Virus record (IMG/VR): IMGVR_UViG_3300046000_001897
Span: 1 to 34,809 of that record
Strand: one strand, 5' to 3'
DNA from: a virus
Length of the DNA: 34,809 nucleotides
Below, one piece after another: positions 4,545-19,881 of the stretch (positions are counted from its first letter, which is position 1; every line of letters begins with the position of its first letter). Made by a program: the position numbers and the translations under genes. The notes under the pieces are model-generated. The model made no database searches. It saw only the letters and a program-made list of their open reading frames with translations, and had not been told where the DNA came from.

Positions 4545-5513
4545 ATGTCATATTACTACAAGTATAATTTTACAACACCTGAGGTTGTTTATTCCACTGT
4601 AAAAGAAGAGCTAAAGAGCTATTTTGATACAGGAGCTATAGATGATCTATTGTTCCCAACCTACCTGGACAAGTGTCTTAGGAAGTTAGGTAGGGCAACT
4701 TATGTCATTGCAGAGGATACAATCCACATAGATGATTTTGTAGCCAGGCTTCCAGATAATTTTTATGCTGTTAGAGAAGCTTGGATGTGTTCAGAAATTC
4801 CTCAGACTCCTTACCAAACAGCAACTTCATTTTATTCTCAAGCTGCTGATGTCACTACTATTCAGGTGAGCCCTGTTATATCTAATGGTCAACCCTGTAC
4901 CAATTTTAATTGTACAACAGGTTGCCCTGAATGTATGCCTGAATTAATTCAAGCTGTATATAAAACAAACGGTCAAGTTACAAGAGGGTATAGGAAGGAA
5001 TATCTTCTTAAACCAGGCAATATATCTACAAGAGGTCAGTGTGATGTAAGTTACACAAATGCTTGGGAGTTTGCTAGTGCTGTTCCTTCACCTAATGAGT
5101 TTACACCAAACTCTGCTGGATATGATTCATTCGACATTAGGGATAATAAGTTTGTAACAAACTTTAGAAATGGTACAGTTAACCTTATATTCTACGCTGT
5201 TGAATATGATGGACTAGGAAATCAATTGATTCCAGATAACTACCGTATAAGAGAATATGTTGAGGCATTTATTAAGTATAAGGTTTTTGAAACTTTGTCT
5301 AATCAAATCAATGATGAAACATTTAATCAGATTCAACAGAAGCTGATGTACTATAAACAAATGTCCGAAGAGGCATTCATTATGGCTGATATTGAAATTA
5401 AGAAACAAGATTCTTGGAGCAAACAAAGAAGAATCAAGAATGATCTTAATAGGTTCAATATGTATGAATTACCTAATAGAACCAGTAGGTATGGTTGGAG
5501 ACGTAATAATTAA
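4545..5513 (+). CDS. Tail adaptor / tail tubular protein A-like connector
   Basis: A 322-residue protein with a helical N-terminus (1-60), a beta-rich and partly Cys-rich centre (NFNCTTGCPEC near 122-132), and a long helical C-terminus (235-300). This layout resembles the P22 gp4 / T7 gp11 class of head-to-tail connectors, which crAss-like phages carry directly upstream of the stabilisation (muzzle) protein. It would form a ring under the portal and seat the muzzle. It starts 4 nt after the HU/IHF-like gene and ends 6 nt before the muzzle gene. The assignment rests on gene order and secondary-structure pattern; no short diagnostic motif exists for this family. Confidence 0.65.
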   Translation: MSYYYKYNFTTPEVVYSTVKEELKSYFDTGAIDDLLFPTYLDKCLRKLGRATYVIAEDTIHIDDFVARLPDNFYAVREAWMCSEIPQTPYQTATSFYSQAADVTTIQVSPVISNGQPCTNFNCTTGCPECMPELIQAVYKTNGQVTRGYRKEYLLKPGNISTRGQCDVSYTNAWEFASAVPSPNEFTPNSAGYDSFDIRDNKFVTNFRNGTVNLIFYAVEYDGLGNQLIPDNYRIREYVEAFIKYKVFETLSNQINDETFNQIQQKLMYYKQMSEEAFIMADIEIKKQDSWSKQRRIKNDLNRFNMYELPNRTSRYGWRRNN

Positions 5514-5519
5514 TAGAAC

Positions 5520-8500
5520 ATGGCAGATGAACTAGAACAGATAAAAAGTATTCTTGGTGGTGGTAAAAGCAACATCAATCAAGAATATAATAATGCAACC
5601 GCAGGCTTAAACTTAGATCAAACTGTAAACCAGATTGAGAAGGGTAAGCTTACATATGCTCTAAATGCTGCTGTAGAAAACTTTGATGCTAGTTCTGTTA
5701 ACTATCAGAATGAGCCAGGCAATGAGCTGTGCCTAAACTTTCCTGAGGAATACCATCTTATTGGAGAACACTTTATAAATGAACAAAACAAACATATATT
5801 CTTTCTTACAAACCCAAATACAGGGGCATCTGAAATTGGGTATATGGATAATAATGACTGTATTTATCACACTTACATTAGTGGCAATTGCCTTAATTTC
5901 AATATTGATAATCCTATTCACAAAGCTGTACATAAAATTACAAACTGCACTACAGAGATTTATTGGACAGATGGGCTTAATCCGAGAAGATATTTAAATA
6001 TTGAAGATGTTGCATCTGCATATTTTATCAAGCCTGGTACAGATGTTTGTGATAATGAAACAATCCCTCAGCTAGATTGTAATAAATTAAAGATTCAGCC
6101 TAATTTTACCATCCCTCAACTGAATGTTGTAGATGTAGTTAATGGGGGAAATCTCACAGCTGGAACTTACCAATTTGCTATTCAGTATTCAAATGCTGTA
6201 GGAGATGGTTACACATCATATTATTCTGTAACTAACCCTACACCAATTGCAATTACCACAATCACCACTGCAGAATTTAACTATGCTGTTGGAAGATCTA
6301 TTGTATTGAATGTTAATAACATAGATGTTACAGGATATTTTAATTACTACAATCTTGCTGTAATTAAAACAGTGAATGATATTACATCTGTAGAACTTGT
6401 AGGTACGTATTTTATAGATGATAACTATAACCAGATAACATATAGTGGTCAAAACCAAACACAAATAAGGCTCACTGCAAATGATATATTTGAAAAGTTT
6501 CCTTATTATGAAATAGCCCAGGATTTAACAGCTGTACAAGATATTCTTGTTTGGGATAATATTACATCTATAGATAGGATTAATTATCAGCAGATAGCAA
6601 ATAAGATTCAACTGAATTGGCAAACTTATAAACTTTCAGCTGATGAAAATTATTCTGATCCAATTGTTGCTACAAACCTAAGAGGTTATCTTAGAGATGA
6701 GATATATGCTTTTGAAATAGTATTTCTTTTAGATAACGGTAAACAAACAGACGGATTTCACATCCCTGGAAGAATTAAGAACTTTAATGAATTTTCTGAA
6801 CCAGATGTTCCAGATACAAATCCTGACTTTATAGGAGAACCTGAGTATGTGTCTGGCGGTGTTGGGTATAGTCCTTATTGGAAAATATATAATACAGCAT
6901 CTGTAATTGGTGCTGCATCAGGATCAAATATTAATAATGCCACACCTTATGAGTTTGGAGAGTTTGCCTATTGGGAATCTACGGATGTTTATCCGTGTAA
7001 TGTTGATGTTTGGGGAGATTTAGCAAATACACCAATTAGACATCATAAGTTTCCTGATGTTCTTGTAAGTCCTATATTTGAAAGTGGTACACCCATTATT
7101 GATTTTGATGGCACTTATGTGGGTTTAAAGATGGCAAATGCTGCCATCTATCCTATAGGCGTAAGTTTAAATATTTCTCAAGTTTATCAATATATAATAT
7201 CGTCTGATTTAACTCAAGATCAAAAAGATAGTATTGTTGGATTTAAGATTGTTAGAGGTAATAGAAGTACAAACACATCAATCATAGCTAAGGGTATTCT
7301 TAGAAACCTTGGTGAATATGAGAGAGAAGGAACATCTTACTATTTTCCTAACTACCCATATAATGACCTTAGAACAGATCCTTTTCTCCTTAAAGAGAAC
7401 AATGCCTTTGATGCTGTTTGTAGAGAGTATCAAGTGACAATCACCGCTGTTACCACAATAGTTACATATTATAGTTGTGACACAGGATTGCAGGTGAATG
7501 TAGCTGCTACAATAGGAGAAATTCTTAACATATGTTCTACAAACTTTCCTACATTCTCAACTTCTGGTGATGGCACTGTAACTGCAACCAATTATGGTGT
7601 ATATAAGTTATGTACAAAAGCAGGTGCTGCTGGAAACAGATTTTCCTATCATTCACCAACTTCCTCTGAACCTACAGTGATATGGGTTTCTGGTGATTTC
7701 TTTGCTCCAAACTGTGAAACAGTTAGCTCTATTACAGAGCCTGTACAAGTGGGAGGAAGTGGTAGATATACTATAAAACTTCTGTACAAACAAACAGGAA
7801 CATTAAATTGTACAGTTAGTGTTGATCAACTAGATGCATTTAATAATGTAAAGTCTCCATATAGATTTGTATTCAACTCCCCTGAGACATCTTTTGGAAA
7901 ACCTTTTCTTGGAAACATTCTAAAACTAGAGAATGCTATTTATGGTGGAGGATCTGCCCACTTTGTACAAGTGACTAAAAACGCAATGTATAAACTTCTT
8001 ACAAAAGAAGCTCAACAAGATGCACTAAAATCAAGTGAGGCTATTGCTAATATAACCAATCCATTTAACTCAACTGCAATGTTTACAGCTTATCAAGCTT
8101 ATTTGCAGATTTACATAAATGGTATTACTAGAAGGAATTATGCTAAGTCATACAACTCAATAGCTAAATATAACTATTGGGCACCTATTGATAATAATAT
8201 AGGCGTTAAACAAAGAGATCTTCAGTTACAACAATATCTAATTCCTGGAGTTCAAAACGTTGGTGATGATTTAAACATAAACAACTTTAATAGAGAATCT
8301 TCCGTATACCTTAAAACAATTGATACAAGAGAGGGGAACGCTGTTTCTAGTCTCCCATATCCTAGTAATACACCAAGTCTTCTTATAGGAGGATTAACAC
8401 CTGCTATTGAGGACAAATCAAGATATACTATTTCTGAAAGAGGAAACTGTCTTCAGCCAGAAAATGAGTTTGATATAACCACTGTTACATATTATGGAGC

Positions 8501-10244
8501 AATAAAGAACATAGCTCTTAATCAGTGGGGTCAAATATATTCTTATGAGACAATAGATACAGGATATCAAAATCTAGTATCTGAAAACTCTAGTTTTGGA
8601 GTGGTTTTTGGAGGAGATACATTTATCAGCAAGTTCTCGTTTAAAACTAAACTACCATTCTTTATAGATAATAGAGTGGGGGCTCCTGATGATAGTGATA
8701 TATTCTATGATGAAATAGGTAATGTGGCCTATCCTAAATACTGGCACTCAGCCAGATCTATACTTAGTGACTATACAGCAACAAATACATCAACTTCTGC
8801 CACTGCAGAAATGAAAAATATTATTTCCTACAAGGCTCATAACTTTGACTGTCCAAATAGTCAAGCTATAGGTAGTCCTGGAAGAACCTTCTATGATGGA
8901 AGTTTCTATTTATTTGCCTATGGTATTCCTACATTCTATTGTGAAACAGCAGTGAATGTTGATCTTAGGCAAGCATTTAATAATAGAGAGGGAGATTTCT
9001 TCCCACACGTGAGTACAGGTATTCCTGATAGTTGGTTACAAGAAAGCTTTGTTCCTATTGTACAGGATAATACATATTATTACAACACTACATTCTCTAA
9101 GCAGAATAAAGAGAACTTCTTCTCACATCTGCCTATAGACTGGACAAGTCAACTTTGCTACACGAACTTTCCATTTAGAGCAATTTATTCTGAGAGGCAG
9201 CAAAGTTTTACAGACAATAGAGTTAATAGTTGGTTAATCTACCGTCCTATAAGCTTTTTTGATTTTCCACAAAACTACGGAAACTTAAATAGTTTAGATG
9301 GTATTCAAAATAGAGCGGTTCTTGCTAGATTTGATAATAAGTCATTACTTTATAACACACTTCTTACAGTAGAAACGAGTAATCCTCAAGCTGCTTATTT
9401 GGGAAATGATACATTATTTAGAAGTGCACCTCCAATAGATTTTGCAGAAACAGATCTTGGATATGTAGGAAGTCAGAATAAAATGCTTCTAAAGATTCCT
9501 CAAGGACAAATTACCATAGATGCTAAAAGAGGACAAGTGTTCCTGATAGCTGGAAACCAAGCTACGGATTTGTCAGCTTTTGGATCTGGACTTAATAGGT
9601 TCTTTACAGACCATTTGGCTTTTGAAATACTTAGGTATTTTCCAAATGTTCCTACAGATAACCATTTTAATGCAATAGGGCTACATGGTGTATATGATAG
9701 TAAGTATGATAGAGTTATCATATCTAAGCTTGACTATATTCCAAATAGCCCAGATGTTAAATATGATTCTACAGCAAACGATTTTTACATAGATAAAGTT
9801 TATGGTGATTTAATTATAAAACAAGTTGTTTATTTAACAGATCTTGAATATTTTTGTAACAAGTCTTGGACACTCTCATTTAACTTTAACACAAAGAGTT
9901 GGGTAAGTTTTCACAGCTATATTCCAAATTGGTATGTTGGTGAAAACAATTTCTTCTATTCTGGATTAAATGGAGGTTGTGACCTAGAAGCTATAGCTGC
10001 TGAAGAAGTACCAACACCTTCTACAACATCTACATCCACCACCATAATTCCTCCAGAACCCCTTTGTCAACTAGTGGGAACTGCAGTAAGGTTGGGTGAT
10101 TGTGAATTAGATGGTGTTGCAGAAAGAACAGAAGACTGTTCTCTTGCTGGGTACACTGAATCGTTTGTTACAACAACTACCACTACTACTACCGAAGTAC
10201 CAATAACTACAACAACAACTACATCTGCTGCACTTCTTCCTTAA
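5520..10244 (+). CDS. Tail stabilisation ('muzzle') protein, main body
   Basis: A 1574-residue protein. The N-terminus (GLNLDQTVNQIEKGKLTYAL near 29-48, then beta-propeller-like strands) and the block before residue 1496 (KSWTLSFNFN, KSWVSFHSYIPNW) match crAss-like stabilisation proteins, related in role to P22 gp10 / T7 gp12. It would form the long nozzle below the tail hub. From residue 1497 the sequence changes. A Ser/Thr/Pro stretch is followed by three 12-residue Cys-led repeats (1516-1551), Thr tracts at 1551-1558 and 1563-1568, and then a stop. The C-terminal domain that normally follows SFHS...NW appears to be encoded separately at 10881-11753. No transmembrane segment is visible. Confidence 0.8.
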   Translation: MADELEQIKSILGGGKSNINQEYNNATAGLNLDQTVNQIEKGKLTYALNAAVENFDASSVNYQNEPGNELCLNFPEEYHLIGEHFINEQNKHIFFLTNPNTGASEIGYMDNNDCIYHTYISGNCLNFNIDNPIHKAVHKITNCTTEIYWTDGLNPRRYLNIEDVASAYFIKPGTDVCDNETIPQLDCNKLKIQPNFTIPQLNVVDVVNGGNLTAGTYQFAIQYSNAVGDGYTSYYSVTNPTPIAITTITTAEFNYAVGRSIVLNVNNIDVTGYFNYYNLAVIKTVNDITSVELVGTYFIDDNYNQITYSGQNQTQIRLTANDIFEKFPYYEIAQDLTAVQDILVWDNITSIDRINYQQIANKIQLNWQTYKLSADENYSDPIVATNLRGYLRDEIYAFEIVFLLDNGKQTDGFHIPGRIKNFNEFSEPDVPDTNPDFIGEPEYVSGGVGYSPYWKIYNTASVIGAASGSNINNATPYEFGEFAYWESTDVYPCNVDVWGDLANTPIRHHKFPDVLVSPIFESGTPIIDFDGTYVGLKMANAAIYPIGVSLNISQVYQYIISSDLTQDQKDSIVGFKIVRGNRSTNTSIIAKGILRNLGEYEREGTSYYFPNYPYNDLRTDPFLLKENNAFDAVCREYQVTITAVTTIVTYYSCDTGLQVNVAATIGEILNICSTNFPTFSTSGDGTVTATNYGVYKLCTKAGAAGNRFSYHSPTSSEPTVIWVSGDFFAPNCETVSSITEPVQVGGSGRYTIKLLYKQTGTLNCTVSVDQLDAFNNVKSPYRFVFNSPETSFGKPFLGNILKLENAIYGGGSAHFVQVTKNAMYKLLTKEAQQDALKSSEAIANITNPFNSTAMFTAYQAYLQIYINGITRRNYAKSYNSIAKYNYWAPIDNNIGVKQRDLQLQQYLIPGVQNVGDDLNINNFNRESSVYLKTIDTREGNAVSSLPYPSNTPSLLIGGLTPAIEDKSRYTISERGNCLQPENEFDITTVTYYGAIKNIALNQWGQIYSYETIDTGYQNLVSENSSFGVVFGGDTFISKFSFKTKLPFFIDNRVGAPDDSDIFYDEIGNVAYPKYWHSARSILSDYTATNTSTSATAEMKNIISYKAHNFDCPNSQAIGSPGRTFYDGSFYLFAYGIPTFYCETAVNVDLRQAFNNREGDFFPHVSTGIPDSWLQESFVPIVQDNTYYYNTTFSKQNKENFFSHLPIDWTSQLCYTNFPFRAIYSERQQSFTDNRVNSWLIYRPISFFDFPQNYGNLNSLDGIQNRAVLARFDNKSLLYNTLLTVETSNPQAAYLGNDTLFRSAPPIDFAETDLGYVGSQNKMLLKIPQGQITIDAKRGQVFLIAGNQATDLSAFGSGLNRFFTDHLAFEILRYFPNVPTDNHFNAIGLHGVYDSKYDRVIISKLDYIPNSPDVKYDSTANDFYIDKVYGDLIIKQVVYLTDLEYFCNKSWTLSFNFNTKSWVSFHSYIPNWYVGENNFFYSGLNGGCDLEAIAAEEVPTPSTTSTSTTIIPPEPLCQLVGTAVRLGDCELDGVAERTEDCSLAGYTESFVTTTTTTTTEVPITTTTTTSAALLP
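10065..10172 (+). repeat. Three 12-residue Cys-led tandem protein repeats
   Basis: Within the muzzle C-terminus, residues 1516-1551 form three consecutive units: CQLVGTAVRLGD, CELDGVAERTED and CSLAGYTESFVT. The shared pattern is C-x-L-x-G-x-A/T. The third unit is more diverged and runs into the Thr tract. The units are similar as protein but not identical as DNA, so this is an old or selected repeat and not a recent slippage product. Confidence 0.7.
10170..10223 (+). repeat. Poly-Thr codon tracts at the muzzle C-terminus
   Basis: Eight Thr codons, a four-residue EVPI break and six more Thr codons form an ACA/ACT/ACC low-complexity tract, followed by SAALLP and the stop. A related tract lies at 10490-10543 in the next gene. 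These tracts encode flexible, potentially glycosylated linkers, and their near-repetitive DNA could promote slippage or recombination. Confidence 0.85.
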
Positions 10245-10261
10245 TTTTATAAATTTAATAT

Positions 10262-10870
10262 ATGGCACAAACAGTAACAATAACATTAACCATAGCTGGA
10301 TTAGATACAGGTCCCTTTGATTTGTATTCTGATGCAGATGGATATGTGGCACCTTTTGAAACAGGTGTTTTGAAAGCTCTATTAGTGGCAGGATACACAT
10401 CTATATTGGTTCCTGATGCAGCTACAATAATTCGTGTAGACTCTACAGGAGTTTGTACAAACTTTATAGATTTACCAATAGATGTAGTTACTCCAACTAC
10501 CACCACCACTAGTACTAGTAGTACAACAACAACCACAACAACAGCATCGCTTGCTCCATTGTTTGTTTATGCTAAATCTATAAATACTGCTGGTGATATT
10601 CAGTATAGCATAAATGCTGGATCTGACGTATTTTTAGCTAATATAAGTGGAATAAACTGTGATTATGTAAATCAAATTACTGGTTTGGTTGGTGGGGATG
10701 TTATAACATTCACTGAAGTTTCTGGAAAAATGATTGATGGAAACAATGGATTTAATGCAGGTTGTCCAAATACTACCCCTGTTCCTAACTGTAACCATGT
10801 TATAACAGTGTCTAGTGGACCAAACTTTGTATATTTAACTGTGGATGGCAGCTCACCGTGTACTCCATAA
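10262..10870 (+). CDS. Two-domain tail appendage protein with poly-Thr linker
   Basis: A 202-residue protein. Residues 1-75 are a beta-rich domain that resembles the first 73 residues of the next gene (VTITL...AG...GPFDLYSD, ending in a Cys and an IP-like strand). Residues 77-94 are a Thr/Ser linker. Residues 100-202 form a second beta-rich domain with four cysteines (INCDY, AGCPN, PNCNH, SPCTP), perhaps Ig-like. There is no signal peptide. It lies between the two parts of the muzzle, so it may be a muzzle decoration or adhesin module. I do not recognise a named family; the domain duplication and linker are read directly from the sequence. Confidence 0.6.
   Translation: MAQTVTITLTIAGLDTGPFDLYSDADGYVAPFETGVLKALLVAGYTSILVPDAATIIRVDSTGVCTNFIDLPIDVVTPTTTTTSTSSTTTTTTTASLAPLFVYAKSINTAGDIQYSINAGSDVFLANISGINCDYVNQITGLVGGDVITFTEVSGKMIDGNNGFNAGCPNTTPVPNCNHVITVSSGPNFVYLTVDGSSPCTP
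10490..10543 (+). repeat. Thr/Ser-codon linker tract inside the appendage gene
   Basis: Residues 77-94 of the 202-residue protein are almost all Thr or Ser, built from ACA/ACC/ACT/AGT codons, and are followed by ASLAP. The tract mirrors the muzzle's terminal TTTTTT-SAALLP but continues into a further domain. Confidence 0.85.
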
Positions 10871-10880
10871 AAATAAATAA

Positions 10881-11753
10881 ATGGCTAAGACAATTGTTGT
10901 ACGAATAAAAAAAGCAGGAAGTAGACTGGGAACATTTTCTATATCTGACGATAGAGGAAATGTCCTTGCTACAGATGTGTCTAAGGCTACGCTCATTTCT
11001 GGGCTAGCTCTTAGCATAGGGGATGACGTGAAGGTGATTGTTTTGACATCTGTAGGAATAAATTGCTGCAGTAAAACTTGGAACATTCCTGTAACAACAA
11101 TAACAATTGAGGAACTTGCAGCCATTCAATATCAAGAAAAGAACACAGCATCTCTTTGGAGGCATCTTACTAATCCTGTTATATATAATACATACTATGG
11201 CTGTATTAAACCATATATTATAGAATATCCATTCTCATATCAATTCAATGATGAAATTCTTCAGAATGTAAAAGATTACACAAGGGCATATAAATATCTT
11301 CCAAGTGTAAAAGGTGTGTTTGATGATAGTAGAAAAATAGAAATAGACAACGAATGGTTTAATAAAGCAGTGTTATATAATGGGCAACAGAGTTCTGGAG
11401 TGCTTGAACTTGTTCCAAAACCAATGAACAACCTAAAGGACTACTTGAAGTATCCTATATATAACGTTGATAGTAAGACAATTACATTTACCAAGAGTGA
11501 TAACTTCTATCAATACAATACATTCTGGGGATTAGTAAAAAGTAAACAAGTGCCTTTATTTGTTAACACTTGCGAAACTATGTCTATTGATAAGATAGTG
11601 AACCAAGAGAATATGGATTATGGCAAGAGATCATTTAAGAAGGAACCTTTAAGAGCTAAATATTTAAAGGTGAGACACATATTGGATAACAAAGATGACG
11701 TACATTTGGTAAGTCAATTCATCACCACCCCTGCTCAAATTTCTTACAAATAA
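10881..11753 (+). CDS. Muzzle C-terminal domain fused to a duplicated beta domain
   Basis: A 290-residue protein. Residues 1-73 repeat the N-terminal domain of the upstream 202-residue protein (AKTIVVRI..AG..GTF, closing with a Cys-Cys and NIPV). Residues 85-290 match what I recognise as the C-terminal part of crAss-like stabilisation proteins. The segments are YPFSYQFNDEILQNV, FNKAVLYNGQQSSGVLEL, YPIYNVDSKTI, FYQYNTFWG, and a closing LKVRHILDNKDDVHL. The domain normally ends a single long muzzle chain, so here it would join the 1574-residue body as a separate subunit. The start follows an A-rich leader 10 nt after the previous stop, and the stop overlaps the next ATG by one base. Confidence 0.72.
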   Translation: MAKTIVVRIKKAGSRLGTFSISDDRGNVLATDVSKATLISGLALSIGDDVKVIVLTSVGINCCSKTWNIPVTTITIEELAAIQYQEKNTASLWRHLTNPVIYNTYYGCIKPYIIEYPFSYQFNDEILQNVKDYTRAYKYLPSVKGVFDDSRKIEIDNEWFNKAVLYNGQQSSGVLELVPKPMNNLKDYLKYPIYNVDSKTITFTKSDNFYQYNTFWGLVKSKQVPLFVNTCETMSIDKIVNQENMDYGKRSFKKEPLRAKYLKVRHILDNKDDVHLVSQFITTPAQISYK

Positions 11754-13888
11754 TGGCAAATAAGATTACATGCCCTAATTGCGGACACTCATGGGATAAA
11801 TCAACGTCCACAGCTAAAGATGCACACGTGTGTCACATCTGTGGTAAGGGTAATGTTAATATGAAAAACGGTGGATGGCTGGATAAATATGAAGCCCCAG
11901 AAGCACAGAATGGTAAAGAATTAACACCAAAAGAATTTACATTACAATATATTAATTCACCTAAATATAGAGAAAGACTTACAAAAAGTGAGTATGGAGA
12001 CATTGATGCTGAGATAAAGAGAAGATATGATAATGTAAAAAATACAAATAATATCATAACTCAATCAGGTCCTTCTGGTGTTTTGGATTCTTTTAAAGGA
12101 TTTGTATTTAATAAACCTTATAATCCTACAGGAGGATCAAATGCTTCAAGTAAAAATACAATTTTTTACGACCCAACAGAAGCAAAAAAAATTGGATCTA
12201 CAAAAGATGAAACATTATCTCATGAGTTTTCTCATAAAGAAACAATGGGGGACAATGATGGTACAATCTTTTTAAACAATAGAGACATTAAAGAACTTAC
12301 AGGAAGACTTAATCCAGGAGCTAAAAAAACGATGCATGATGCTAGAGCTGATGAGAACAAGGCTGACATGAATGCTGTAAGATATTGGTTATATAATAAT
12401 GGTGTAGATGTTTTTAATAAAGATCTTACACCAGAAGATTTAAAGAAGGCTAAAGCTTCTGGAAAATTTACTAGTAATAGATTGTTTAAAAATTATAAAT
12501 CAGATGAAGATTTATTATGGTTATTAAATAATGTAGCTAAAAATAAATCAAATCAAGAAGTACGTATAGCACAGAACGGTATAGAGGGAACAATGGGTGG
12601 ATTGACAGATGTAGGATTTAATTATAATGGTGCATGGGGAGGTCCTTCTATGGCTATGGGTGGAAGTCTTCCAGGATCTGTAGGATTCACATACGCACGT
12701 ATACAGGGGTCTGCTCCTGCCAATGGTAAGTATACCAAGAAGACAAAAGCTAGTGCTCAGAATGGGGCTGAAATGTCTTTCTATCAGAATGGATTAGATT
12801 GGAAACCAAGGAATATTAGTAGGGATGGTGCATGGTTGGATAAGTATGACGATATTCCTAAAGCTCAAATGGGAACAATGACAACACCTCTTGATTTCTC
12901 TAAACCAATAGGAACGTTAGAAGGTGTTTCAGAAGTGATGTCTGCTCCTGCTAGAACAGCAACATACCTACTTACAGGAAAGTATCAAGATCCTTCTCAA
13001 GCTCTTGGTATTAAAAATCCTTGGGGGGCACTTGCTGCAGACATGGTTCTTGATCCTGTTAATTTAATAGGAGCAGGAGTTGCTACAAAAGCTGCTAAAG
13101 CTACAAAAGCTGCAACCAAAGCTTTAAATCCTATGAAAAAAGCTATTGATAAAGCTGTTGTTTATAGTTCAGAATTACAGTATCATCCCAGTTTTGAAGA
13201 AGCATTGGATAAAGGTTATCTACAGGCTGTAAAAAATATGGATAAACTTTCTGAAACTAACAAAGCTTTAGCTAATAATCCTTGGAAATTTTTACCTGAT
13301 GAAATAAAAAAATATAAAATACAGAATGATTTAGATGAACAAATGAGAACTATTCATGAGATTCATCCTGAAACTATAACAAGTTTACAAGAATTAAAAC
13401 CAGAATCTGTTTTATTTGATAATATGTCAAAAAGAACGTTAGAAAATTTTGCAGGTGATGTAACTTCTGGAACTAATTGGAGTAGTGGAATAAATAAGTA
13501 TTTTAGTAAATTGGATATGTCTAAATTTAAAAACGAAGAAGAGTTTTTAAAAGATGTAAGAAAAAAAGAGTATCAAGAATTCTTAAAGAAACATCCTAAA
13601 GATTATAAATTTTCTATGACAGATTTAATTTCTCTTCCTAAAAATAAACAAGGTGGAGAAATAACTAAAGACGACATGGGCTATTGGAATCCAGACAACT
13701 GGGGAGAGCCTGTAGAAATAGGAAGCAACAATATAACAATGCAAGGAGTGTATGAACCTCTCCTTGGCATATCTGATGAAGGAGATACAAAGATGATGTA
13801 TCCTGGGAAAGATTATAAGTTCAAGGGTAAGAAAGTGAGAGAATACCCTATAAGTAAAAATGGTGGTTGGTTAGATAAATATAAATAA
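11753..13888 (+). CDS. Cargo-type protein with zinc ribbon and HExxH metallopeptidase domain
   Basis: A 711-residue protein starting within the preceding stop. Residues 7-30 form a CxxC...CxxC zinc ribbon. Residues 150-265 contain HEFSH (157-161) and ENKAD (201-205), the pattern of a zincin whose third ligand is a downstream Glu or Asp. The following NAVRYWLY and LLWLLNNVA segments match a peptidase-like domain I associate with crAss-like cargo proteins. Residues 425-455 are hydrophobic and Ala-rich and could touch a membrane. GGWLDKY or GAWLDKY occurs at about 40-46, 359-365 and 704-710, and AQxG occurs at 51, 273, 335 and 371. Likely role: an ejected virion protein acting on cell envelope or capsid proteins. 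Residues 470-655 are markedly AT-rich in coding DNA. Confidence 0.68.
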   Translation: MANKITCPNCGHSWDKSTSTAKDAHVCHICGKGNVNMKNGGWLDKYEAPEAQNGKELTPKEFTLQYINSPKYRERLTKSEYGDIDAEIKRRYDNVKNTNNIITQSGPSGVLDSFKGFVFNKPYNPTGGSNASSKNTIFYDPTEAKKIGSTKDETLSHEFSHKETMGDNDGTIFLNNRDIKELTGRLNPGAKKTMHDARADENKADMNAVRYWLYNNGVDVFNKDLTPEDLKKAKASGKFTSNRLFKNYKSDEDLLWLLNNVAKNKSNQEVRIAQNGIEGTMGGLTDVGFNYNGAWGGPSMAMGGSLPGSVGFTYARIQGSAPANGKYTKKTKASAQNGAEMSFYQNGLDWKPRNISRDGAWLDKYDDIPKAQMGTMTTPLDFSKPIGTLEGVSEVMSAPARTATYLLTGKYQDPSQALGIKNPWGALAADMVLDPVNLIGAGVATKAAKATKAATKALNPMKKAIDKAVVYSSELQYHPSFEEALDKGYLQAVKNMDKLSETNKALANNPWKFLPDEIKKYKIQNDLDEQMRTIHEIHPETITSLQELKPESVLFDNMSKRTLENFAGDVTSGTNWSSGINKYFSKLDMSKFKNEEEFLKDVRKKEYQEFLKKHPKDYKFSMTDLISLPKNKQGGEITKDDMGYWNPDNWGEPVEIGSNNITMQGVYEPLLGISDEGDTKMMYPGKDYKFKGKKVREYPISKNGGWLDKYK

Positions 13889-13909: not shown

Positions 13910-16900
13910 ATGAAAAAAGACATTCTAAAAATTGCTGGTGTTAAGTCTGAAAAGGAATTCTACAAGAAATATCCTACAGAGGAAGCGTTTAAAAAAGCTT
14001 TTCCAAAAGAGTATAAGAAAGCTGCTATGGGTGCTTCCATGGTGAAAAAGCAATTAGACCAGCTCACTGATTTTGGTAATCCTCCACAAGCTCAAGTTGG
14101 AGCATTTATTGGTGGTGAACAATCATCTTATCAACCAGTAAACTATGCAGATGTTTCTGATCAAGTGGATTATTCTGTAACAGGAGTGAATCGTCAAATG
14201 AGAATGGATCAAGACAATCTTGCATCTCAACAACAAGTTGCTGAGAACACCAAGAAGAAGGGTGGAATAATGGGATCAATTGGAGACATTGCTAGTATGG
14301 CAGAATCTCTAAGATATGGTGGTGGTGTTCGTAAAGCTCAGTTTGGAGATTATATGAAGCAATTTGGACCACAGGTAGCATCGTACGATAAAGGTATGAT
14401 TCAATCTCCTACAGGACAAGTTAGTATGCAACAAACAGAAGGTCTAGGGTTTAAATCTGATGGAAGTAACTATGGAATGAATAAGCTTTCTTTAGGCATG
14501 CAGAATTTTGGAAAAGACATTGGTGCAGGATATGATAAACTTGATGCAGGTCTTGGAAAGGTTGGTGGTGTGCAGGGTGCTATGAGCATTGGTACTGATT
14601 TGATTGAAGGCTTTCAGCAACTTAAACAAGAAAAGAATCAACAGAAACAAGCAAACCAATCTTTTCAGTTAAGTGGATTAACAAGACAAGCAGCAGAACT
14701 CACTCCAGATATAGCTCAACGCAAATATACTAGACCTGAGGATATGGCATTTGGTACACAAGAGATGGGTCAATCGTATGGTGCAGGAACAAACTTCTTA
14801 GCAGCAAATGGTGCTATGGTTGGTGGTAATCCAACAGAAATACAAAACATGTACAATCCTGGAGACATCTATTCTGATATGGGATATGAGCCTCTTAGTG
14901 ATAGTGAAATAGTTAAACAATACAGAAGAGGTGGATTTATTAGAAAAGCTCAGCTTGGTGGTGGGGTGGATAAAATGGCAGGAAATCTTGGAGGTAGTCT
15001 AGGAAGTTTGATTGGTGGAGGTAAAGGAAGACCAACAGCTGGTGGTAAAATAGGAAGCACTATTGGGTCTACAGTGGGTAAATTCATTCCTATCCCTGGA
15101 GCATCTGCAGTTCTTGGTGCTGTTGGAGGTCTTGTAGGTGGTGCGTTTGGTGGAAAGAGCGCAAAGAAAACAGCAGCTTGGGAAACTGGAACAGAGCAAA
15201 ACCTTGCAGGTCAAAAATTTACAGCAGGGGTGAGAGGTATACAAGGGCAGAATACATCAGTTATGGAAGATGGTGGATGGGTTAGTCATGATTGGCAGCC
15301 ACAGGTGATAACACAATTTGGTGGATATGATATGAAGGATCTTCTTAGAGATGATCCAACAATGGATACATTAAGGGCTGGTGGTCATCTTAAAAATTAC
15401 ACTGCTCCTAGTGCAAGAGCTATGTCTACAGAAAGACCTGACTATTTTGCTATGGGTGGTCAATTAAAGACTACATGGGGTGGTGATGCTGAAACAATCT
15501 CACAAAATCCATATCTCCCAGGAACAGGAGAAACTGTTATGTTCAGAGGACAATCTCATGATGAGTCTGATGGAAATGGAAACACAGGAATAGGTGTTAA
15601 ATATGGTCAAGGGGCTCGAGATAGCTATACAGACTATGCTGAATATGGAACAAATCAAGCTGATGCTGATGTTGAGGTGGAAAGAAATGAGCCTGCTACA
15701 GAACTTCTTGATGGAGAAACAGGGGACACTAGTCTTGTTGTATATGGTAATATGAAGATTCCTTCCTATGGTGTGAGTGAGCTTGGTGATCCAAAAGCTA
15801 AGGGTAAGAAGTTTAAATCTTATGCTAATGATTTGAGCAAGCAAGAAGCAAAATATAACAAAACTGTAGAGAAAGGAACTAAACTAATAGATTCTGTAGA
15901 TGGAGATAATCCTTTTGACCTACTTAAGTTGAATTCTGGTAAAGCAATGGTGATGGGAGCTAATGAATCACTGAAAGGACTTGCTATTCAAAAGCAACGT
16001 CTTGCAGGTATACAGAATGCTATTCTAGATACAGCAGAAGAAATGGGTCTAGAAAGTGATGATCTTGCTAATGGTAAGATTAAACCTATGAAAAATTCAG
16101 ATATGGCTAAGTTTGGAGCTAAGCTTGACACAGCGCAAAAAGGTAAAAAGCTTTCTGCCAAATTGGACAGACCATCATTTATGGATCCTATTTCTTTTCC
16201 TAAACCTTCTCTAGGATATACACCAATGGGATTAACTGATTCTAGAGCTGAGGGAGCTATTCCAGAGTCTGTATATGAAACTACAGGCCAAGATAGATAT
16301 TATGATATGTTACCTCCAAGAGTTAAACCTATGTATGGAACTCCTATTGATTCAATACCAGCAGTTGATCAATCAACAACTGGTGAGAAGAAAGATAAAT
16401 TTGACTTGGCAGATGTTTTAAGGCAAGCTCAACCATATCTAATTCCAAGTAACCAAGAAGATTTTGATTATGGTTCAATTAATCCTGAATTAAACGCATT
16501 AGCTCAGAATCAATTAGAACCTGTACAAGCACAGACATTCCAACCCCTATTAGAACAACCATATAGTGTTTCTCTACAAGACCAGTTAAATGCTAACCAG
16601 GCTGACTTCAATGCTTTACAAAGGCAAGTGGGATATAACCCAGCAGCTCTTTCACAATTAGCTGCTCAGAAATATTCTGCTAATTCTGCTGTCCTTGGAC
16701 AACAATCTAGAATTAACCAAGAGATGCAAATGGGTGCATTTAATAGAAACAGAGGACTGTTGAACGAAGCCACCCTTAAAAACTTTGATATTCTAGATAG
16801 ACAATATACAAGACAATCTGAAGCTAAATCTAAAACAAAGGAACAAACACAGGCAGCTCTTACTTCAATAGCTGACAAAATAGCTAAACATAAGCTAGAT

Positions 16901-17131
16901 AACAGAACATTGGGTGTGTACGAAAATATGTACAATTACAGATTTGGTCCTAAGGGAAGAGCTATTAATGCTAATGCTCCTGCTGATTTTAACATGCAAG
17001 GTAACCAAGCTAGTAATAGTGGTATGCCAACTCTTCCTGAGGGTTACGAGTATTCAACAGAAATAAGAAAGAAGAAAACAAAAGATAACGCTAAGAATGG
17101 CTCTATTGTAAAAGCTATAAAAAACCTATAA
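13910..17131 (+). CDS. Gly-rich cargo / ejection protein
   Basis: A 1073-residue protein. The N-terminus (VKSEKEFYKKYPTEEAFKKA, 11-30) is typical of crAss-like and other Bacteroidota phage cargo proteins. Residues 350-416 are a glycine-zipper stretch (GGSLGSLIGGG, GSTIGSTVG, LGAVGGLVGGAFGG) that could insert into a membrane. A FRGQSHDES segment, followed after about 40 residues by VEVERNEPATE, matches a domain I recall as common in these proteins. The C-terminal part (860-1000) is Gln-rich and helical. AQxG motifs occur at 61, 143 and 347, with GGWVSHDW...TQFG at 455-471. It probably travels inside the capsid or tail barrel and helps form the DNA channel during ejection. Confidence 0.7.
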   Translation: MKKDILKIAGVKSEKEFYKKYPTEEAFKKAFPKEYKKAAMGASMVKKQLDQLTDFGNPPQAQVGAFIGGEQSSYQPVNYADVSDQVDYSVTGVNRQMRMDQDNLASQQQVAENTKKKGGIMGSIGDIASMAESLRYGGGVRKAQFGDYMKQFGPQVASYDKGMIQSPTGQVSMQQTEGLGFKSDGSNYGMNKLSLGMQNFGKDIGAGYDKLDAGLGKVGGVQGAMSIGTDLIEGFQQLKQEKNQQKQANQSFQLSGLTRQAAELTPDIAQRKYTRPEDMAFGTQEMGQSYGAGTNFLAANGAMVGGNPTEIQNMYNPGDIYSDMGYEPLSDSEIVKQYRRGGFIRKAQLGGGVDKMAGNLGGSLGSLIGGGKGRPTAGGKIGSTIGSTVGKFIPIPGASAVLGAVGGLVGGAFGGKSAKKTAAWETGTEQNLAGQKFTAGVRGIQGQNTSVMEDGGWVSHDWQPQVITQFGGYDMKDLLRDDPTMDTLRAGGHLKNYTAPSARAMSTERPDYFAMGGQLKTTWGGDAETISQNPYLPGTGETVMFRGQSHDESDGNGNTGIGVKYGQGARDSYTDYAEYGTNQADADVEVERNEPATELLDGETGDTSLVVYGNMKIPSYGVSELGDPKAKGKKFKSYANDLSKQEAKYNKTVEKGTKLIDSVDGDNPFDLLKLNSGKAMVMGANESLKGLAIQKQRLAGIQNAILDTAEEMGLESDDLANGKIKPMKNSDMAKFGAKLDTAQKGKKLSAKLDRPSFMDPISFPKPSLGYTPMGLTDSRAEGAIPESVYETTGQDRYYDMLPPRVKPMYGTPIDSIPAVDQSTTGEKKDKFDLADVLRQAQPYLIPSNQEDFDYGSINPELNALAQNQLEPVQAQTFQPLLEQPYSVSLQDQLNANQADFNALQRQVGYNPAALSQLAAQKYSANSAVLGQQSRINQEMQMGAFNRNRGLLNEATLKNFDILDRQYTRQSEAKSKTKEQTQAALTSIADKIAKHKLDNRTLGVYENMYNYRFGPKGRAINANAPADFNMQGNQASNSGMPTLPEGYEYSTEIRKKKTKDNAKNGSIVKAIKNL

Positions 17132-17217: not shown

Positions 17218-19881
17218 ATGGCTTCATTTACAGACGCAATATCGCAATTTAACCCCTATGTTTCCCAGCTTCCCATACAGGCTATGAAGGAAGTGGGTAT
17301 GTACAAACAAGCCAAGTATGAGGAAGGGGTACAGAAAATCCAAGGAGAGATAGATAAAGTGGCAGGATTGGATATTACCAAACCGTTACATAAACAATAT
17401 CTTGAATCTAAGCTCAATCAACTTGGCAGTAAATTAAAAACTGTAGCTGCTGGGGACTTCTCAAACTTCCAATTAGTTAACTCTGTAGGAGGAATGGCTA
17501 CACAAATTGGTAAAGATAAAGTTATTCAAAATGCTGTAAGGTCTACACAACAGGCAAGACAAGAACAAGAAAAGATACAAATTGCCCAAAAGGCTGGAAA
17601 ATCATCTGTTAACAATGAAGACTATTACTACGATGATTATAGTAAATGGTTGAATGATGGTAAATTAGATACAACATTTACTGGTGAGTTTGTTGAGTAT
17701 AAAGACGTAGATGCTAAACTTAGAGACCTAACAAGTAAGTTAAAAGAAGATGAGACATCAGTTGAGAACCCTTTTGAGAGAGATGGAAATGGAAAAACCT
17801 TATATTATTACACAGATCCTAAAACAAAAAAGGAAATGTCTTCTACAGATCCTTCTAAAGGGCAGCCAAGATGGGCTTTAGATATGTTAAAGGTTTCAGT
17901 TAAAGGATTGCCTGCACAAAGAATTCTTAACAACTTTTATAATAGTTTAGATGCTAATGATCAAAGGCAATTAAGAATAGATAGTTGGGCACACTACAGA
18001 GGAGCAGGTCCTGAAAAATTTACAGCTAGCATAAAAGAAGCTTATGCTAATAAAAAGGAAATGCTTTCTGAAGAGCTGGTTGATTTAGCTGTTAATCTTA
18101 AAAATCCTCAGATAACAGGTGTAGATAAACAAAAGATAGAGGCCAGAATGGCAGAGGTGAATGATATAATCAACAATAAGGTTATAGAAAAAGAAATGTC
18201 TGACGATCTTCTGGAGTTACAAAATCCTAAAAATCTAGAAGATTTTAAATACAAAACGTATACACAAAACCATCTCACTGGTCTTGCAAAAGATTTAGCT
18301 AACAGGAGTTACATAGAAGAAAGAAAAGCCAACCCTGCAGAACAAGCTAACTTGGCAAGGCAGAAGTTCCAGTTTGACCAAATTCAGGAGAATAACAAAC
18401 TGATGATGTTTAGAACTACAGAAGGAAGACTTGAAAGAGAGTTTGAATATAAAAAAGATAAAGATTACTTAGAGAAAGTTTCAAAGGGATATAGAGTGAC
18501 TCCTGGTGAGTGGAAGACAGGTGAACGAGCTCCTGAAGTAAACGATTTGCAAAATGATCTTGCCATTTCAGCAAAACAATATGTTGAGACGCAAAATAAA
18601 TTTGCAGAACGTTTATATCCAAGTGGTACTGGAAGATATAAAAACATGACGCTAGATCAAAAGAGAAAAGCGTTAGACACAATGACCTCAAACTATAGAA
18701 AGAATCCTAATATGGAACTAACTCCTGATGAGCAGGAATATTTAGAACAGAATAGGCAAGTTGAGAATGGGCTTTCAAAAACAATAAATCAATTAAATTC
18801 TGCACAACAATTTGAAATAGATTTTAAGAAGAAATATGTAGATGATAAGTTACAAAACCAAACTATATCTGCTGGGGGAACTACATACAGTGGAGGTGAT
18901 GTTGTAGATTTTAATTCAAACATAGATAAATTTAACAAGTCTGGAATATCTATGGGCAGAAGTGGTACTCCTGTTGCATCACAATATTTTGATGATAAAG
19001 AAGCATTAAAGTTTTATACAACATATAAAGGTGGAAAACTTTTACCAATATATAATGCTTGGAGTAAAGATAGAACACCTTTTGCAATGATGAGTAAAGA
19101 TGATGAAAACTTAGTTAATTTTTCCAAAAATGTAAAAGCATCAGTGGGTGATGTAGATGCTGTAGCAAAAGATGCTGTAGGAAAACACATTGCTACAATT
19201 AGTCCTAAATACACTGTACAGAGAGCAGCAATCGACATGTCTGATCCTAATAAAGTGAAAGATCTTGATGAGTTTCTTGCAACAAAGCAAGGTCAATTTA
19301 ATGCAAAAGGTGCACTTGATGTAAGTTTTGGAGAATATACTCCTACAGGATCTGCAGAAATTAGAGCAGCAAAGGGCTCAAGCTTCCTAATAGAAAAAAA
19401 TAAAGATGGTAGTGCTAATGTAGTATTAATGGGAGCAAATGGAAGTAAGCAAATAGTTCCAGCACAACCAAGTGAGGTGGCTCTATTTTTCCGAGAGGTT
19501 GCTGTAACAAGCCCTTTTGCTGATTTGAAAGAAACTATACTATCATCTAAAACAAAAACAACAAATTCAGCAAATGTAAGATTTGAGCCTGGTTCTGGAA
19601 GTGGTGCTATAAATGCAATGCTTAGTGGATATCAGCTTGGTCAACTTAATGGTTCTGGATATGAATCTAAAGTGAGAGTTGATGTTGAGGGTAATCTAAG
19701 TAATACTGGAAATCCTGAAACTGATTCATACACTGTAGTGATGTACGTACCAGACATGAAGACAGGTGGATGGAAAGGGAATTATGTTAGTGGTGGATAT
19801 GTTTCAGAGTCAGATGTAATAAGTGTATTAAGTAAGATTAGTCCTGATAATATAAATCAAGCAATTAAAAGATTTAAGTAA
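17218..19881 (+). CDS. crAss-like cargo protein (887 aa)
   Basis: An 887-residue protein with the conserved N-terminus I recognise from crAss-like phages: FNPYVSQLPIQAM at 11-23, KYEEGVQKIQGEIDKVAGLD at 33-52, HKQYLESKL at 60-68 and a GDFSNFQLVNS block near 79-89. Residues 130-150 include the Tyr-rich NNEDYYYDDYSKW. Residues 260-560 are highly charged and predicted to be mostly helical or coiled coil. The C-terminal 300 residues are more beta-rich and Gly/Ser-rich. No enzyme motif is seen. It is the first gene after a strong promoter and overlaps the RNA polymerase gene by one base, so the two products are probably made together and packaged together. Confidence 0.72.
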   Translation: MASFTDAISQFNPYVSQLPIQAMKEVGMYKQAKYEEGVQKIQGEIDKVAGLDITKPLHKQYLESKLNQLGSKLKTVAAGDFSNFQLVNSVGGMATQIGKDKVIQNAVRSTQQARQEQEKIQIAQKAGKSSVNNEDYYYDDYSKWLNDGKLDTTFTGEFVEYKDVDAKLRDLTSKLKEDETSVENPFERDGNGKTLYYYTDPKTKKEMSSTDPSKGQPRWALDMLKVSVKGLPAQRILNNFYNSLDANDQRQLRIDSWAHYRGAGPEKFTASIKEAYANKKEMLSEELVDLAVNLKNPQITGVDKQKIEARMAEVNDIINNKVIEKEMSDDLLELQNPKNLEDFKYKTYTQNHLTGLAKDLANRSYIEERKANPAEQANLARQKFQFDQIQENNKLMMFRTTEGRLEREFEYKKDKDYLEKVSKGYRVTPGEWKTGERAPEVNDLQNDLAISAKQYVETQNKFAERLYPSGTGRYKNMTLDQKRKALDTMTSNYRKNPNMELTPDEQEYLEQNRQVENGLSKTINQLNSAQQFEIDFKKKYVDDKLQNQTISAGGTTYSGGDVVDFNSNIDKFNKSGISMGRSGTPVASQYFDDKEALKFYTTYKGGKLLPIYNAWSKDRTPFAMMSKDDENLVNFSKNVKASVGDVDAVAKDAVGKHIATISPKYTVQRAAIDMSDPNKVKDLDEFLATKQGQFNAKGALDVSFGEYTPTGSAEIRAAKGSSFLIEKNKDGSANVVLMGANGSKQIVPAQPSEVALFFREVAVTSPFADLKETILSSKTKTTNSANVRFEPGSGSGAINAMLSGYQLGQLNGSGYESKVRVDVEGNLSNTGNPETDSYTVVMYVPDMKTGGWKGNYVSGGYVSESDVISVLSKISPDNINQAIKRFK

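What the first reader, a model, noticed from the sequence alone, without database searches (positions are those of the whole stretch)
9890..11753. Muzzle protein appears split into two genes with an insert between them
The 1574-residue body ends just after the SFHS...NW block that I recall as being followed, in a single chain, by a C-terminal domain. That domain (ILQNV, AVLYNGQQSSG, YPIYN, FYQYNTFWG, LKVRHILDN) instead starts at about residue 80 of the gene at 10881, with a 202-residue protein encoded in between. Reassembly of a tail nozzle from two polypeptides would be an unusual variation on a conserved crAss-like structure.
Basis: partly seen in the sequence, partly recalled or inferred. 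Interest (0 to 1): 0.72.

Follow-up and report, generated by a model that had tools for sequence, protein, structure and literature searches.

The report
crAss-like phage muzzle split between genes
In a large, apparently uncultured group of crAss-like phages, the protein that forms the tip of the tail is made as two separate chains (in a few relatives three), cut at the tight turn of a beta-hairpin and carrying variable adhesin-like arms at the cut; a chain that is single in every solved or cultured relative examined has become a multi-piece display platform.

Summary
Gene 5520-10244 is a crAss-like muzzle protein lacking its last ~200 residues. Those lie in gene 10881-11753 (residues ~89-290), with a separate 202-residue gene between. 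PHROG 15100 (1783 positions) is hit at 12-417 by the first gene and at 1587-1780 by the third. The cut falls in the tight turn between two strands of one beta-hairpin (crAss001 gp44 ~1232-1236). It is not peculiar to this contig: all 92 distinct contigs of this clade are cut there (one origin), 16 others at a neighbouring loop (several origins), and four of the 92 at both, giving three-gene muzzles. 32 relatives are single chains. Broken ends carry fast-evolving Thr-linked arms; the muzzle pieces evolve under strong purifying selection. The C-terminal piece begins with a ~75-residue Ig-like domain that also begins the middle protein. A Cys just past the break in the body is present exactly when a Cys just before the break is present in the C-terminal piece (92/92), suggesting an inter-chain disulfide, though only 3-5 evolutionary changes underlie this. 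Best reading: the pieces rebuild the muzzle non-covalently, perhaps disulfide-stapled, and the break serves as an adhesin-display site. No earlier report was found. Assembly and arm function are untested.

The parts
5520..9965 (+). Muzzle body: muzzle-homologous part of gene 5520-10244 (residues 1-1482), up to the third strand of a propeller-like blade (..NNFFYSG)
   Evidence: PHROG 37948/15100 and Pfam crAss_MUZ hits; all four N-terminal segments lie in one chain in 87 of 88 loop-B-only contigs, the other being truncated
9840..9965 (+). Strands between loop A and loop B (EYFCNKSW...NNFFYSG, ~42 aa); start of a separate gene in three-gene relatives
   Evidence: HMM P2; AlphaFold strands E289-294, E299-304, E310-313, E318-322 in fused L217
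9966..10241 (+). C-terminal arm of the body: Cys- and Thr-rich linker tail, 92 residues, variable between relatives; includes Cys 1487 (nt 9978-9980)
   Evidence: 55% identity to nearest relative against 90-93% in the muzzle parts; dN/dS 0.48
10262..10870 (+). Middle gene, 202 aa: X domain (residues 1-77), poly-Thr linker, variable C-terminal domain
   Evidence: X-domain HMM hit E 3e-11 at residues 1-77; no Pfam/PHROG function
10881..11105 (+). X domain at the N-terminus of the C-terminal muzzle gene (residues 1-75), predicted beta-rich Ig/FN3-like fold
   Evidence: present in 91 of 92 loop-B-split contigs; AlphaFold pLDDT 76-88
11130..11750 (+). Muzzle C-terminal part (residues 84-290): outer strand of the split hairpin (SLWRHL) and the C-terminal domain
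   Evidence: PHROG 15100 positions 1587-1780; 73-89% identity in 80 relatives; dN/dS 0.07-0.09
4545..5513 (+). Ring protein 1 homologue (tail barrel), the upstream partner of a crAss-like muzzle
   Evidence: Pfam CrAss_Ring_1 E 3e-10, PHROG 34036
11753..13888 (+). Next gene, 711 aa, PHROG 24249 tail protein; zinc-ribbon-like N-terminus and an HExxH-type motif (HEFSH)
   Evidence: sequence

Best explanation
The window encodes a crAss-like tail muzzle in two polypeptides. The gene was broken once, in the ancestor of this clade, at the tight turn between strands 3 and 4 of what is probably the last beta-propeller blade. The body keeps the N-terminal ring-joining, propeller, Ig and crass parts up to strand 3; the second chain supplies strand 4 and the C-terminal domain. 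The two chains are inferred to rebuild one muzzle subunit in the hexamer by strand complementation, probably locked by disulfides across the broken hairpin (body Cys 1487 to the X-domain Cys 62/63 here; a second body Cys to Cys 91 in about half of relatives). The break is exploited as a display site: the body ends in a variable Thr-linked arm, the C-terminal chain starts with an Ig-like X domain, and the middle gene makes an extra X-domain protein with its own variable adhesin-like end, which I propose docks on or beside the C-terminal chain. Shown: gene split, homology to one chain, position in a predicted hairpin, clade-wide conservation, purifying selection on the muzzle pieces, fast arms, concordant cysteines. 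Inferred: assembly in the virion, disulfides, docking of the middle protein, receptor role of the arms.
For: Adjacent non-overlapping coverage of PHROG 15100. Fused homologues joined by a short turn. Profile of fused chains aligns to crAss001 gp44 988-1304 (96.4%, E 1.3e-9), placing the break at gp44 ~1232-1236, next to the Pfam boundary between crAss_MUZ (ends 1235) and crAss_MUZ_C (starts 1244). AlphaFold of fused L217 (pTM 0.65) has strands 318-322 and 325-329 with a two-residue turn at the break; Foldseek best hits are the crAss001 muzzle (7qok, 7qol, E ~1e-11, probability 1.0). 92/92 contigs of the clade cut at loop B; 4 of them also at loop A; 16 others at loop A; the tree needs one change for loop B and at least seven for loop A. 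No other place in the ~1500-residue chain was found cut. dN/dS 0.01-0.09 in muzzle pieces, 0.24-0.56 in arms. Body Cys and C-terminal Cys 91 concordant 92/92 and 54/54 tree rows; fused chains lack this pair. Arms carry ice-binding-like, PKD and Fib_succ_major domains in relatives.
Against: No direct evidence that the two chains meet; co-folding could not be run. The Cys concordance rests on 3 supported (5 best-tree) changes, too few for a sign test, and one (L015/L035) looks like exchange of the whole block. AlphaFold of the C-terminal chain alone is poor (pLDDT 26-68 in the muzzle part), which fits dependence on the body but may reflect a less diverse alignment. The X domain has no significant structural match. 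Arm function is unknown.
Confidence: 0.77

Rival explanations
1. The muzzle is still one protein in the virion: an intron, split intein, frameshift or stop read-through joins the parts.
For: crAss-like phages are known for introns, inteins and recoded stops (PMC7886860).
Against: No Rfam intron in the window; the intervening DNA is coding, with Thr-linked domains; the body ends in TAA and the middle gene lies in another frame; the C-terminal gene has its own ATG in an A/T-rich context in the 54 relatives inspected; no intein-like ends seen by eye; the N-terminal X domain is shared with stand-alone proteins.
Confidence: 0.04
2. The split is real but the C-terminal chain has left the muzzle and works as a separate tail or decoration protein.
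For: It carries a new N-terminal domain, found also on stand-alone proteins.
Against: The body then lacks the strand and C-terminal domain that every fused relative has; both pieces are about equally constrained (dN/dS 0.04 and 0.07 against L001); Cys states at both sides of the break change together; in all split contigs seen only arms or a few small genes lie between them.
Confidence: 0.1
3. The split is a neutral scar: a mobile adhesin cassette landed in a tolerant hairpin and the pieces still assemble, but the arms and middle protein have no selected role on the muzzle.
For: Arms are highly variable and unrelated between close relatives; an unrelated gene (GH108 endolysin, L111) also sits in the gap.
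Against: Repeated splitting at the same two neighbouring loops, retention of the X domain in 91/92, and open in-frame arms across lineages argue for use. It does not contradict two-chain assembly.
Confidence: 0.2
4. Artefact of assembly or an inactive gene in this one contig.
For: None found.
Against: Same structure in 92 distinct contigs from many metagenomes with strong purifying selection.
Confidence: 0.01

Closest known systems
PhicrAss001 muzzle protein gp44 (PDB 7QOK/7QOL; Pfam PF25731 crAss_MUZ + PF25729 crAss_MUZ_C)
   Same: Same family and gene neighbourhood (after a ring protein); sequence-profile match and best structural match of a fused relative; the break lies at the boundary between the two Pfam models.
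   Different: gp44 is one 1371-residue chain; here the last ~200 residues are a second chain, with a new N-terminal domain and an intervening gene.
Single-chain muzzles with a loop A insert (Cellulophaga phi4:1, FpV4, L113, L114, L127)
   Same: A muzzle loop used as insertion site for variable sequence, 780-1400 nt long at loop A.
   Different: Chain remains unbroken; the insert is within one gene.
Loop-A-split muzzles found here (L094, L095, L098, L099, L104, L106, L110, L116, L117, L121, L234-L238, L240)
   Same: Muzzle in two genes with variable arms at the break; extra middle genes in L104 and L110.
   Different: Break one loop earlier; the 3' gene starts with a Cys-rich segment instead of the X domain; separate origins.
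T7 gp12 / P22 gp10 nozzle-stabilisation proteins
   Same: Propeller plus ring-joining architecture (PMC10172136).
   Different: Single chains without crass domain or display arms (general knowledge; not compared here beyond weak Foldseek hits to T7-like nozzles).
Intron- or intein-interrupted crAss genes (Yutin et al. 2021, PMC7886860)
   Same: A conserved crAss gene appears in pieces.
   Different: Those are rejoined by splicing; here no intron or intein signature and each piece has its own start, stop and extra domain.

Membership tests
crAss-like muzzle protein (PF25731 + PF25729 / PHROG 15100) | Sequence match to the muzzle profile over the N-terminal and central parts | tested here: met
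   crAss_MUZ E 3.7e-35; PHROG 37948 E 1e-105
crAss-like muzzle protein (PF25731 + PF25729 / PHROG 15100) | C-terminal domain present in the same chain | tested here: not met
   It lies in gene 10881-11753; so the pair of genes, not the first gene alone, is the full muzzle homologue
crAss-like muzzle protein (PF25731 + PF25729 / PHROG 15100) | Gene position next to a crAss ring protein | tested here: met
   4545-5513 hits CrAss_Ring_1
crAss-like muzzle protein (PF25731 + PF25729 / PHROG 15100) | Hexameric muzzle with gate at the tail tip | not testable with these tools
   Needs virion structure
Crassvirales-like phage | crAss-type portal in long relatives of the clade | tested here: met
   crAss001 portal gp20 matches 7 of 8 relatives' contigs, E 1e-25 to 3e-32; the eighth is an 8 kb fragment
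Crassvirales-like phage | crAss major capsid protein | tested here: inconclusive
   crAss001 gp32 found no match in the same contigs; divergence can explain this
Gene interrupted by intron or intein | Self-splicing RNA or intein domain at the break | tested here: not met
   No Rfam match in the window; no intein-like ends in sequence by eye; Pfam shows no intein domain in the three genes

The most novel reading that the evidence does not exclude
A structurally essential hexameric tail-tip protein has repeatedly been dismantled into two or three separately translated chains at neighbouring loops of one propeller blade, with inter-chain strand complementation and disulfide staples replacing the lost peptide bonds, turning the blade into an exchangeable multi-arm adhesin platform to which extra X-domain proteins dock.
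Probability: 0.42. Interest if true: 0.78.

Novelty: new variant of a known kind. Interest (0 to 1): 0.66.

Why it matters
The muzzle is a hallmark protein of the crAss-like phages and the gate for DNA and cargo release. If the clade builds it from separately translated pieces, then a covalent chain is not needed for the gate, and the break explains how variable adhesin-like domains are displayed and exchanged at the very tail tip. It gives natural split sites (one hairpin turn, sometimes two loops) for dissecting muzzle assembly, supports a receptor-contact role for this face of the muzzle, and warns annotators that single-gene muzzle profiles will miss or truncate the protein in these phages.

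Tried and rejected
phmmer of body and of the 290-aa protein against PDB: no relative. Profile hmmsearch of fused fragments against PDB: no hit; the gp44 link needed profile-profile alignment and Foldseek. hhalign of the C-terminal profile alone against gp44 was weak (E 0.065) though in the right place. AlphaFold of the C-terminal gene alone: only the X domain is confident, and its Foldseek hits are all non-significant. Genome-contig scan for host or integrated copies: none. crAss001 capsid protein against long relatives: none. Considered and dropped: intein or trans-splicing, intron, programmed frameshift, second intact muzzle copy (only one match in the record), assembly error, additional hidden splits in the N-terminal part (none). 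Paper searches for split muzzle, nozzle or crAss Thr-rich arms gave no prior report; the library is open-access only, so a report elsewhere is possible.

Full report
OBSERVATION. PHROG 15100, a 1783-position crAss-like muzzle family, is hit by the first gene at 12-417 and by residues 89-287 of the third gene at 1587-1780; PHROG 37948 adds 1191-1759 for the first gene. Pfam identifies the first as crAss_MUZ and the gene before it as CrAss_Ring_1. Muzzle homology stops at residue ~1482 (nt ~9965..NNFFYSG) and restarts at residues ~84-91 of the third gene (..NTASLWRHL). What follows residue 1482 in the body is a 92-residue Thr/Cys-rich arm, so 'ends just after the block' is slightly off.

REFERENCE CHAINS. 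In five phage records the two parts are one chain: Leptolyngbya phage Lbo-JY46, csAssE-Sib, Cellulophaga phi4:1, Flavobacterium FpV4 and MT837925. There the strands run straight through, e.g. NFETGIQKNSRSSVWSHN. A profile of fused chains aligns to crAss001 gp44 residues 988-1304 (96.4% probability, E 1.3e-9), with the break at gp44 FYAF-KDG-KMWEQF, about 1232-1236. gp44 is the solved muzzle chain 7qok/7qol/8ckb. Pfam ends its muzzle model at 1235 and starts the C-terminal model at 1244 in gp44, so its curators put a boundary at the same place.

STRUCTURE. AlphaFold of the fused fragment of L217, one of the two fused contigs that group as sisters of the clade, gives pTM 0.65 with strands 289-294, 299-304, 310-313, 318-322 and 325-329. 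The break is the two-residue turn between the last two, i.e. a hairpin of one blade. Foldseek returns the crAss001 muzzle first (E ~1e-11, probability 1.0). The published structure describes a ring-joining domain, a seven-bladed propeller, two Ig-like domains and a crass domain, with length variation by insertions in the crass and IG2 regions (PMC10172136). The C-terminal gene folded alone shows a confident X domain (residues 1-75, strands with one short helix) but a poor muzzle part; this fits a chain that needs its partner, but the alignment was less diverse, so it is weak evidence.

HOW COMMON. The best 80 of 402 viral-contig relatives of the C-terminal part are all split. Five scans gave 140 distinct contigs or records: 32 single chain, 88 split at loop B (as here), 16 split one loop earlier (loop A, between the DYIP strand and EYFCNKSW), and four split at both loops (L030, L126, L196, L211). 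In those four the ~42-residue strand set between the loops begins a gene of its own, followed by a variable arm, so the muzzle is three genes. The tree of 91 sequences needs one change for loop B (clade support 100/99, with fused L217 and L218 as sisters) and at least seven for loop A, including up to three within the window's clade. Nowhere else was the chain found cut: apart from truncated or very diverged rows, every body carries its N-terminal parts. Several fused relatives have 780-1400 nt inserts at loop A, a plausible intermediate step. The sampling is of best matches, so proportions are not prevalence.

WHAT SITS AT THE BREAK. Between the window and five close relatives the muzzle pieces are 76-93% identical with dN/dS 0.01-0.09, while body arm and middle-protein ends are 33-57% identical with dN/dS 0.24-0.56, and many are plainly different domains (dS is near saturation, so ratios are rough). 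Arms in relatives include an ice-binding-like domain (E 3e-48), PKD and Fib_succ_major domains, of kinds common on Bacteroidota surface proteins (general knowledge). L111 has a GH108 endolysin in the gap. An X-domain profile hits the N-terminal part of 91 of 92 loop-B C-terminal genes, 42 middle genes including the window's (E 3e-11), and 26 stand-alone genes, those listed lying upstream of the muzzle block. Its closest folds are Ig/CnaB/FN3-like but none significant. In loop-A-split phages the 3' gene starts instead with a Cys-rich segment that, by eye, also starts their middle genes.

CYSTEINES. In all 92 loop-B contigs the fourth residue after FFYSG in the body is Cys exactly when the residue before [LIV]W in the C-terminal chain (window residue 91) is Cys: 49 with both, 43 with neither. 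In the 54-sequence alignment it is 54/54, against 7-30 concordant for the other Cys columns tested. The fifth residue (window Cys 1487) and X-domain Cys 63 are near invariant, and L215 lacks both. Fused chains lack this pairing. This is what inter-chain disulfides across an opened hairpin would give. Caution: only three changes lie on supported branches (five on the best tree), all concordant but too few for significance, and L015/L035 probably changed by exchange of the whole block. The window itself is of the other type (one body Cys, Ser 91, X Cys 62/63). The crAss001 tail barrel and hubs are reported to be stabilised by disulfides (PMC10172136).

ALTERNATIVES. No intron in Rfam terms; starts are ordinary; intervening DNA codes for domains; only one C-terminal copy exists in the record. 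Introns and inteins in crAss genes are known (PMC7886860) but do not fit. The C-terminal piece acting elsewhere is possible but disfavoured.

MEMBERSHIP. The gene pair meets the muzzle family's sequence and neighbourhood features; the single-chain feature is not met. Long relatives (110-119 kb contigs) carry a crAss portal; the capsid search was empty and inconclusive. No INPHARED record is close: the best matches to the C-terminal gene are 25-30% identical, so the clade appears to lack a sequenced isolate there.

VERDICT. Finding confirmed and enlarged: a clade-wide, once-originated split at a hairpin turn, with recurrent splits nearby and three-gene forms. Two-chain reassembly is likely; disulfide stapling and adhesin display are reasonable but untested.

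Noticed in passing
L126:2902-10630, L030:3899-10627, L196:3778-10618, L211:3206-10612: Muzzle encoded by three genes, the middle one starting with only ~42 conserved residues of muzzle strands followed by a variable arm.
   Followed up: yes
L126:8604-9770: The arm of the second muzzle piece carries an ice-binding-like domain (PF11999, E 3e-48); the arm of the first carries a Fib_succ_major domain.
   Followed up: partly
L111:7838-8308 and 8314-8538: A GH108 endolysin and a small membrane-protein-like (holin-like) ORF lie between the two muzzle genes.
   Followed up: partly
L074:263-745, L067:738-1313, L174:214-1152 and others: Stand-alone X-domain genes in 26 cases, those listed upstream of the muzzle block; the X domain looks like a general N-terminal module of small, probably virion-associated proteins.
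   Followed up: partly
L015 and L035: These lie in the double-Cys part of the tree but carry window-type hairpin ends and X domain, suggesting exchange of the whole break region as one block.
   Followed up: partly
L109:1445-10663: Single-chain muzzle ORF of about 3070 residues nested among loop-A-split relatives, with only a short loop A; possible re-fusion or loss of the split.
   Followed up: no
L082 (PP438436, Leptolyngbya phage Lbo-JY46): A phage recorded from a cyanobacterium has a crAss-like muzzle 31% identical to the window's; the other named relatives with a recorded host infect Bacteroidota, so the host record deserves checking.
   Followed up: no
window 13910-17131, 17218-19881, 19881-32192: Three large proteins (1073, 887 and 4103 aa) without any Pfam or PHROG match at E 0.01.
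   Followed up: no
window 11753-13888: 711-residue tail-type protein with a zinc-ribbon-like N-terminus and an HEFSH (HExxH) motif, possibly a virion-carried metallopeptidase.
   Followed up: no
L110:2809-3201: A nucleotidyltransferase-like ORF (by eye) sits in the gap of a loop-A-split muzzle.
   Followed up: no
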